Assembly: GCF_004799685.1 (NCBI RefSeq) | Contig: NZ_CP031311.1 | Span: 682,001-746,000, forward strand | From: Halobellus limi | GTDB taxonomy: Archaea > Halobacteriota > Halobacteria > Halobacteriales > Haloferacaceae | DNA length: 64,000 nt | Direction of reading: 5' to 3' | Part shown: piece by piece, positions 267 to 40,228 of the stretch | Layout: each line of letters begins with the position of its first letter | Position numbering within the stretch: position 1 is the first letter of the stretch | Notes under the pieces: generated by a model | Databases searched by the model: none | Told to the model about the DNA's origin: nothing | The model's input: the letters and a program-made list of their open reading frames with translations, nothing else | Made by a program: the position numbers and the translations under genes

Positions 267-382
267 CGTGCGCCATCTGCGTCACGGACGTACAAAAACC
301 GTCGTGCTTTCGGCATCCCTGTCGGACGCGCTCCGGTCCGTCCGACGGACGTGCGTTTATATAGGAGAGAGCGACCAGTCGC

Positions 383-493
383 CCCGTGACGTGAGATTCA
401 CCCCGCGTCGGGCCGCGGTCGCTCGGCACGTCGACGCGGGAGCCGAGCGGTCGCATTCGAGGCCCCGCGACCGCGCGTGTGCCGACTGTTCGC
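383..493 (+). ncRNA. Candidate structured RNA, copy A (paired with copy B at 40107-40219)
   Basis: A TATA box (TTTATA, 356-361) lies 44 bp before a 41-bp core (400-440) that recurs at 40124-40164 with two differences. Helix P1 pairs 402-410 with 432-440 (CCCGCGTCG/CGACGCGGG). Helix P2 pairs 447-454 with 467-474 (GCGGTCGC/GCGACCGC). A conserved 17-nt tail at 477-493 follows. Within the tail, GTGCCGA (479-485) is complementary to TCGGCAC (423-429) in the P1 loop, so a pseudoknot is possible. Copy B keeps P1, the loop, the tail and the TATA spacing exactly and replaces P2 with an unrelated but equally paired helix. The 5' end is inferred from the TATA box and the 3' end is unknown. Function is unknown. 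Confidence 0.6.
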
Positions 494-533
494 CACCCCG
501 ACGCCGGACGCTCACCCGTCGATCGTGACCGTG

Positions 534-40005: not shown

Positions 40006-40106
40006 TCCGGTAGCGGCGAACCCCACATAACGCGATTCGGGATCATCGACGCCTCGCTGTTTTCGCAACCGGACGTAGGTTTATATCCGAACCCGCGGCC
40101 AGAGCC

Positions 40107-40219
40107 CTCGTGATCTGACGACGACCCCGCGTCGGGTCGCGGTTGCTCGGCACGTCGACGCGGGGAAACGGCGACGGCGCTGCGAGGACGTCGTCGCCGG
40201 CGGTGTGCCGACTGTTCGC
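40107..40219 (+). ncRNA. Candidate structured RNA, copy B
   Basis: TTTATA (40080-40085) lies exactly 44 bp before the conserved core (40124-40164), as in copy A. P1 is CCCGCGTCG/CGACGCGGG. P2 is CGGCGACG (40169-40176) with CGTCGCCG (40192-40199): a different sequence from copy A but the same 8-bp length. The conserved tail GTGTGCCGACTGTTCGC is at 40203-40219, and GTGCCGA can pair with the P1 loop TCGGCAC. It lies between carB and the DUF6149-like gene. The 3' end is unknown; a further repeat follows. Confidence 0.6.
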
Positions 40220-40228
40220 TACCGGGAC

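What the first reader, a model, noticed from the sequence alone, without database searches (positions are those of the whole stretch)
383..493. Paired loci encode the same TATA-driven RNA with a fully covarying helix
Copy A (383-493) and copy B (40107-40219) share a 41-nt core with two differences, a 17-nt tail and exactly 44 bp from TATA to core. P1 (9 bp) is identical. P2 has a completely different sequence in each copy yet the same 8-bp pairing (GCGGTCGC/GCGACCGC against CGGCGACG/CGTCGCCG). The tail segment GTGCCGA is complementary to TCGGCAC in the P1 loop, which suggests a pseudoknot. This is strong sequence evidence for a structured, transcribed RNA. It is not tRNA, 5S, SRP or RNase P RNA as far as I can tell. 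Function is unknown.
Basis: partly seen in the sequence, partly recalled or inferred. Interest (0 to 1): 0.85.

Follow-up and report, generated by a model that had tools for sequence, protein, structure and literature searches.

The report
Haloarchaeal start-stop pseudoknot RNA family
The two matching sites are members of a previously uncatalogued family of small RNAs found across most salt-loving archaea (59 copies in this genome alone), each starting with a tiny "start codon, one codon, stop codon" message placed right in front of a tightly folded RNA knot, and sharing a promoter with genes for a pilus-like machine.

Summary
Copies A and B are two of 59 clear copies in this genome. Covariance models find the family in 285 of 392 sampled genomes of the order, in 68 of 95 genera and at least 12 families. 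Haloferax has 2-3 copies. Rfam has no match.

Two helices are proven by covariation: P1 (98.7-99.6% paired, 8 of 9 pairs with double changes) and a 7-bp pseudoknot between the P1 loop and the tail.

Two new features stand out. (1) The predicted +1 is a leaderless mini-ORF, ATG/GTG-NNN-stop. It is intact in 159 of 168 copies, uses TGA, TAA and TAG, and lies exactly 16 nt before P1, where the front edge of an initiating ribosome would sit. (2) The promoter carries an unusual element (GSGRCCA) between TATA and +1. It also precedes leaderless genes of a pilus/secretion-ATPase, MinD/ParA and nuclease set, across families. All 25 RNA-positive genomes tested carry that set; about 9 of 23 RNA-negative genomes carry some of it.

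Best model: a trans-acting RNA that docks or pauses initiating ribosomes while this regulon is on. Family, structure and promoter are shown; the ribosome step is inferred. No expression data were available.

The parts
356..363 (+). Copy A TATA box (TTTATATA)
   Evidence: Conserved at a fixed place in 168 copies; promoter matrix scores 33.4 bits, one of only two hits above 12 in the window
371..377 (+). Copy A promoter element GSGRCCA (here GCGACCA) between TATA and +1
   Evidence: Columns 19-25, up to 1.9 bits across genera; shared with leaderless protein genes
386..394 (+). Copy A predicted +1 and leaderless mini-ORF GTG-ACG-TGA
   Evidence: 159 of 168 copies keep ATG/GTG plus an in-frame stop at codon 2, 3 or 4
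402..410 (+). Copy A P1 5' strand CCCGCGTCG, 16 nt after the start codon's first base
   Evidence: Covariation; spacing:
423..429 (+). Copy A pseudoknot 5' strand TCGGCAC (in the P1 loop)
   Evidence: Compensatory changes with the tail
432..440 (+). Copy A P1 3' strand CGACGCGGG
447..474 (+). Copy A P2, optional variable hairpin (GCGGTCGC 447-454 / GCGACCGC 467-474)
   Evidence: Sequence; loop-3 segments of this genome fold better than shuffles on average (mean z -2.0, 22 of 47 below -2), but P2 is absent in many relatives
479..485 (+). Copy A pseudoknot 3' strand GTGCCGA
486..495 (+). Copy A conserved tail CTGTTCGCCA; conservation ends here (likely near the RNA 3' end)
40080..40087 (+). Copy B TATA box (TTTATATC)
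   Evidence: 38.0 bits
40095..40101 (+). Copy B promoter element GCGGCCA
40110..40118 (+). Copy B predicted +1 and leaderless mini-ORF GTG-ATC-TGA
40126..40134 (+). Copy B P1 5' strand CCCGCGTCG
40147..40153 (+). Copy B pseudoknot 5' strand TCGGCAC
40156..40164 (+). Copy B P1 3' strand CGACGCGGG
40169..40199 (+). Copy B P2, optional variable hairpin (CGGCGACG 40169-40176 / CGTCGCCG 40192-40199)
   Evidence: sequence
40205..40211 (+). Copy B pseudoknot 3' strand GTGCCGA
40212..40221 (+). Copy B conserved tail CTGTTCGCTA

Best explanation
SHOWN: the two sites belong to a haloarchaea-wide family of short RNA genes (RNA of about 80-110 nt). Each has its own TATA promoter, a predicted 5' end at a leaderless mini-ORF (ATG/GTG, one freely varying codon, stop), and 16 nt from the start codon's first base to an H-type pseudoknot (P1 of 9-11 bp; 7-bp helix between the P1 loop and the tail; optional P2 hairpin in loop 3), then a conserved CTGTTCGCC tail. 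The copies carry a promoter element that is also found at the leaderless start codons of a conserved set of pilus/secretion-ATPase, MinD/ParA and nuclease genes. INFERRED: when this regulon is switched on, perhaps by the TFB paralogue encoded in the same gene cluster, the RNAs are made and act in trans on the translation apparatus. A ribosome loads on the 5'-terminal GUG, as on other haloarchaeal leaderless mRNAs. Its leading edge abuts the pseudoknot, and within one codon it meets a stop. It is therefore held, or cycles unproductively, in an initiation/termination state. Up to 59 copies per genome would give the dosage for a transient translation brake or ribosome-associated regulator during the pilus-expressing state.
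For: Family: 59 copies here, 131/170 genomes of the family, 285/392 of the order. RNA structure: P1 98.7% and 99.6% paired with 172 and 53 double-changed cells against about 45 and 10 in shuffles; pseudoknot strands follow each other's changes (CGACTC/GAGTCG, CGGTTC/GAACCG, CGGGAC/GTCCCG). Mini-ORF: 154/168 have ATG/GTG-NNN-stop, 3 more have the stop one codon later in frame, 2 are ATG-TGA; frames +1 and +2 give 0 stops at the same place; TAG occurs 10 times but TGG once (Fisher p=3e-10, ignoring relatedness); codon 2 varies over 17 codons. Geometry: 16 nt from start codon to P1 in 148 of 160 copies across all families; initiating ribosomes protect to about +15/+16 (established knowledge). Leaderless start: with the same promoter pattern the RTG is the exact first codon of 9 protein genes here and of orthologues elsewhere. 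Co-occurrence: 25/25 RNA-positive genomes have DUF7857 and DUF7283. Acting in trans: neighbour genes and orientation vary. Precedent: haloarchaeal CreT RNAs act through a leaderless mini-ORF plus a downstream stem-loop (PMC8501985).
Against: No transcript, ribosome footprint or mutant was seen. The tools hold no expression data and supplements could not be read. Codon 2 is usually a common codon (ATC, ACG, ACC, CGC), so nothing shows that translation is harmed. 9 of 168 copies lack the standard ORF by the script (most with ATC, GTC or GTA instead of a start codon; L067 has TGG; L212 has an intact GTG-ACG-TAA shifted by a few nt). A ribosome on the mini-ORF could simply protect the RNA. The CTGTTCGCC tail is unexplained. 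Haloferax manages with 2-3 copies, so dosage cannot be essential everywhere.
Confidence: 0.42

Rival explanations
1. Ribosome binding at the mini-ORF only protects or matures the 5' end. The working part is the pseudoknot plus the variable P2/tail, acting in trans as a protein-binding or base-pairing regulator of the pilus regulon or of other mRNAs.
For: P2 is hypervariable between copies, as a target-specific arm could be. PMC8708949 discusses two-codon minigenes in bacteria that protect RNA. The pseudoknot and tail are as conserved as the ORF.
Against: P2 is absent in Haloferax and in some copies here, so a P2 guide cannot be the common function. The exact 16-nt spacing is not needed for mere protection.
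Confidence: 0.27
2. CreT-like RNA toxin that sequesters a tRNA or causes peptidyl-tRNA drop-off through its single sense codon.
For: Same architecture as the leaderless CreT of H. hubeiense: start codon, short ORF, UGA, stem-loop (PMC8501985). Two-codon minigenes are the most toxic in E. coli (PMC8708949).
Against: CreT needs two consecutive rare codons; here there is one, and it is mostly a common one. No creA or CRISPR repeat was noticed beside the copies (not searched systematically). 59 chromosomal copies without an antitoxin would be hard to tolerate unless silent.
Confidence: 0.1
3. Cis-acting element: an antisense RNA or collision device at the 3' ends of convergent genes, or an insulator between tandem genes.
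For: The downstream neighbour is convergent in 39/59 copies here and 66/80 in other genera, with the stop codon often within about 25-40 nt.
Against: The bias vanishes in other families (16/29). Neighbours are unrelated housekeeping genes. A cis device would not need the start-stop ORF or the pseudoknot.
Confidence: 0.08
4. Selfish dispersed repeat (MITE-like) that carries its promoter along; RNA features are by-products.
For: Genus-specific expansion to about 50 copies on top of a few old, syntenic ones.
Against: No clear target-site duplications and no near-identical copies (maximum core identity 95%, upstream flanks at chance 29%). No match in phages, plasmids or viral contigs. Compensatory evolution across the order and syntenic loci across genera show purifying selection on the RNA.
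Confidence: 0.06
5. Decoy of the large ribosomal subunit: the tail CTGTTCGCCA equals the 23S A-loop (H92) and binds an A-loop partner such as a tRNA CCA end or a methyltransferase.
For: Ten-base identity with E. coli 23S.
Against: Only CTG and GC(C) are near-constant; the middle varies (TCA, CAA, ACA, TCC). The A-loop stem cannot form when the pseudoknot forms.
Confidence: 0.05

Closest known systems
Haloarchaeal CreT toxin RNAs (Haloarcula hispanica / H. hubeiense; PMC8501985)
   Same: Small haloarchaeal RNA with a very short ORF at or near the 5' end, ending in UGA, followed closely by a stable structure; the H. hubeiense form is leaderless.
   Different: CreT (H. hubeiense) has six codons with two consecutive rare codons and a simple stem-loop, beside creA. 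Here: one common codon, a covarying pseudoknot, up to 59 copies, its own promoter element, no CRISPR link seen.
Two-codon minigenes (lambda bar type; axe-txe mg2, PMC8708949)
   Same: Start, one codon, stop.
   Different: Those are bacterial and mostly act in cis or as toxic ORFs; none that I know of is part of a conserved pseudoknot RNA family.
Viral readthrough/frameshift pseudoknots (e.g. MuLV gag-pol; general knowledge)
   Same: H-type pseudoknot 7-8 nt after a stop codon.
   Different: No downstream ORF to be read; RNA of about 100 nt; archaeal.
Multicopy bacterial regulatory sRNA families (Qrr, OmrAB type; general knowledge)
   Same: Several paralogous sRNA genes under one regulator.
   Different: Far more copies, a mini-ORF, no seed region identified, archaeal.

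Membership tests
CreT toxin RNA | Mini-ORF with consecutive rare codons | tested here: not met
   One codon, mostly common ones: ATC 24.5, ACC 21.6, CGC 35.9 per 1000
CreT toxin RNA | Neighbouring creA with CRISPR-repeat-like sequences | not tested
   Not searched systematically; neighbours are unrelated housekeeping genes
CreT toxin RNA | Stable structure directly after the mini-ORF | tested here: met
   P1 starts 16 nt from the start codon
CreT toxin RNA | Toxicity relieved by extra tRNA | not testable with these tools
   Needs experiment
Two-codon minigene | Start, one sense codon, stop | tested here: met
   154/168 copies
Two-codon minigene | Translated; releases peptidyl-tRNA | not testable with these tools
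   No ribosome profiling available
Any Rfam 15 family | Score over the gathering cut-off | tested here: not met
   No hit on the window copies or on the copies in 15 relatives
MITE / insertion element | Target-site duplication, recent near-identical copies | tested here: not met
Structured trans-acting RNA | Compensatory base changes in helices | tested here: met
Structured trans-acting RNA | Transcript from the predicted start | not testable with these tools
   Promoter inferred from conservation only
RNA of the pilus/MinD/nuclease promoter class | Same promoter at the same distance from a leaderless start codon | tested here: met
   67 places in this genome, reversed-pattern control 0; orthologous genes in other families

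The most novel reading that the evidence does not exclude
A dedicated alternative transcription programme in haloarchaea (a TFB paralogue recognising an element downstream of TATA) turns on a pilus-like DNA-uptake or exchange machine together with dozens of 'ribosome-parking' RNAs. In each RNA a 5'-terminal start-X-stop ORF loads a ribosome against a pseudoknot placed exactly at its leading edge, so translation is braked while the cell is in that state. This would be the first RNA class built to hold leaderless-initiating ribosomes.
Probability: 0.2. Interest if true: 0.95.

Novelty: categorically new. Interest (0 to 1): 0.84.

Why it matters
A structured RNA family conserved across an entire order of archaea, with up to 59 copies in one genome, absent from Rfam and not found in the papers searched here, would be one of the largest RNA families in archaea. 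Its start-X-stop ORF at a fixed ribosome-length distance from a pseudoknot makes a testable link between leaderless initiation and RNA control. The shared promoter points to a previously unnoticed haloarchaeal regulon (pilus ATPase, MinD/ParA, nucleases, possibly with its own TFB), which bears on two open questions: what the many archaeal TFBs are for, and how haloarchaea exchange or take up DNA. The Haloferax genomes searched carry only 2-3 copies, so a clean deletion should be feasible in a laboratory model.

Tried and rejected
Minimum-free-energy folding of single copies was uninformative (z 0.1 and -0.8), because it cannot model the pseudoknot. Rfam, both thresholds: nothing. Pairing of the GTGATC 5' end with the 16S 3' end was dropped, because GTGACG and GTGCGC variants break it. 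Pairing of loop GCGG with tail TCGC was dropped, because tail variants do not co-vary. Rare-codon tRNA sequestration was rejected on codon usage. A cis role beside convergent genes was dropped, because the bias is absent in other families. Mobile element: no clear TSDs or recent copies; phage, plasmid and viral collections empty. A first promoter pattern was off by one base and found nothing; the corrected one gave. Terminator: no T-runs after the tail in this genome (0 of 57). Literature: no description found in 10 searches of an open-licence library, which is not proof of absence.

Full report
WHAT WAS CLAIMED AND WHAT IS THERE. The two copies exist as described. A BLAST of copy A against its own genome, however, returns about 40 places. 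A covariance model built from 41 copies (alignment A1; model R1) finds 59 clear copies, E from 9e-33 to 3e-13, then a gap. Most lie on the main 2.96-Mb replicon and a few on a 398-kb one. Relatives in the same GTDB genus have 25-59 matches each, apart from five genomes with none or a single marginal one; those show roughly a tenth of the first-look candidates, which suggests low G+C. In the family, 131 of 170 genomes and 20 of 28 genera are positive. In the order, 285 of 392 genomes, 68 of 95 genera and at least 12 families are positive, with a second model R2 built from other genera. Genus g43, with 2-3 copies per genome, is Haloferax (H. marinum and H. profundi named). Copies from different genera sit at the same gene neighbours (a zinc-ribbon/HAD-phosphatase locus, a locus convergent to a gene ending REFHPFP, and uvrC). 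The family therefore has an old vertically inherited core plus genus-specific expansions.

STRUCTURE. P1 is a 9-11-bp helix. In 80 copies from 19 other genera it is 98.7% paired, 8 of 9 pairs show changes on both sides, and 172 cells are double-changed against 45 in shuffles; structures slid by one to three columns fall to 31-50% paired. In 29 copies from other families it is 99.6% paired with 53 double changes. Examples are CCGGCAC/GTGCCGG, TCGACAC/GTGTCGA, TCGGTAC/GTACCGA, TCGGCGC/GCGCCGA in this genome, and CGGTTC/GAACCG, CGACTC/GAGTCG, CGGGAC/GTCCCG elsewhere. Many departures in that table are tail mis-anchors of the script. P2 is not the defining helix. In minimal versions, as in Haloferax, loop 3 is only about 8 nt. 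Where it is long, in this genus, it tends to fold (mean z -2.0 against mononucleotide shuffles; 22 of 47 below -2).

THE 5' END. Conservation starts abruptly two bases before the aligned block and runs CG-N4-TTTATATA-CGA-N4-GSGRCCA-N8-RTG. The TATA box lies 30 to 23 nt before the RTG, the usual spacing in haloarchaea, where leaderless transcripts are the norm (general knowledge). What follows is a minimal ORF. Among 168 copies 154 read ATG/GTG-NNN-stop, three have the stop one codon later in frame and two are ATG-TGA; the same test in the other two frames gives none. All three stops occur. TAG occurs ten times, whereas TGG, one change away from TGA, occurs once (Fisher p=3e-10, to be read with care because copies are related). 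The middle codon is free and common: ACC, ATC, ACG, CGC and 13 others. The distance from the start codon's first base to P1 is 16 nt in 148 of 160 copies over the whole order. An initiating ribosome with that codon in the P site ends at about +15/+16 (toeprint knowledge), so the pseudoknot stands exactly at its leading edge, and 7-8 nt after the stop codon.

THE PROMOTER CLASS. The element between TATA and +1 is unusual for archaea and is not explained by the RNA. Searching the genome with TTTATATACGANNNNGSGRCCAN8RTG (up to 3 mismatches) gives 67 places against 0 for the reversed pattern. Most are RNA copies. Nine are protein genes whose first codon is exactly the RTG: a pilin-like protein (DUF7382), DUF7857, two MinD/ParA ATPases, a PLD-type nuclease, a small protein near mre11/rad50-like genes, DUF7283, a TadA/PilB-like secretion ATPase and DUF7310. 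In Haloferax and other genera the same pattern precedes DUF7382, DUF7857, a ParA, DUF7283, the ATPase and a Cas4-like protein. A matrix trained only on RNA promoters picks out the start codons of these genes in other families and almost nothing else in ten 11-14-kb stretches; in the 64-kb window it hits only copies A and B. All 25 RNA-positive genomes tested carry DUF7857 and DUF7283. Of 23 RNA-negative ones, 8 carry DUF7857 and 9 carry DUF7283 at strong E-values. A TFB paralogue lies in the same cluster (DUF7857-MinD-TFB-DUF7858-ParA) here, in Haloferax and in other families. That it drives the class is inference.

HOW IT MOST LIKELY WORKS. Shown: the RNA gene family, its two helices, the mini-ORF constraint, the fixed spacing and the shared promoter. 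Inferred: expression with the pilus/MinD/nuclease set; loading of ribosomes on the 5'-terminal GUG; docking against the pseudoknot; a trans effect on translation. The nearest working precedent is haloarchaeal CreT, where a leaderless mini-ORF followed by a stem-loop stops growth by trapping a rare tRNA (PMC8501985). The feature that makes CreT toxic, rare codons, is absent here, so this is not filed as CreT. A cis role beside the convergent genes seemed attractive (39/59 and 66/80 convergent) but fails in other families (16/29). A mobile-element reading fails for lack of duplicated target sites, recent copies or occurrence on phages, plasmids or viral contigs.

LIMITS. No expression, 3'-end or ribosome data were available. 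Searches over more than 40 genomes used stricter filters and capped the number of scored candidates, so copy numbers outside this genome and absences are approximate. Gene calls used for neighbour statistics come from a simple codon-usage script, and RNA ends for those statistics were set by a pattern. The literature library is incomplete. The rating 'categorically new' refers to the RNA family and its combination of features; its parts (mini-ORF plus downstream structure) have a functional precedent in CreT.

Noticed in passing
own genome C1:2389500-2400500 (L310), 341500-349500 (L307), 2428000-2433500 (L311), 2245500-2249500 (L308), 523000-527000 (L306): A putative regulon sharing the RNA promoter: TadA/PilB-like ATPase, PilC-like protein, DUF7283/7285/7286/7310/7311, DUF7382 pilin-like protein, MinD/ParA ATPases, PLD nuclease, Cas4-like protein (Haloferax). 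It looks like a DNA-uptake or exchange machine; no paper on these DUFs was found.
   Followed up: partly
L307 3395-4282 (-); also L343, L344, L347, L348: A TFB (transcription factor B) paralogue is conserved beside DUF7857-MinD and DUF7858 in several families, near an mcm-like gene; it may be the dedicated factor for this promoter class.
   Followed up: partly
window 486-495 and 40212-40221: The tail CTGTTCGCCA is identical to ten bases of the 23S rRNA A-loop (H92), checked in E. coli. Possibly coincidence; natural variants keep only CTG...GC.
   Followed up: partly
L219 1587-1794: Two copies lie back to back in divergent orientation, 26 nt apart, in one genome of another genus.
   Followed up: no
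L250 1501-2034: In one genome a copy lies immediately beside the archaeal RNase P RNA gene.
   Followed up: no
genomes G001, G009, G010, G012, G016: Relatives placed in the same genus, probably of low G+C, lack the RNA by this model although some keep DUF7857/DUF7283; either loss or a diverged AT-rich form.
   Followed up: no
L069, about 90-190 nt downstream of the hit start: The P2 region of this copy appears internally duplicated (two similar hairpins in tandem), hinting at how P2 arms grow.
   Followed up: no
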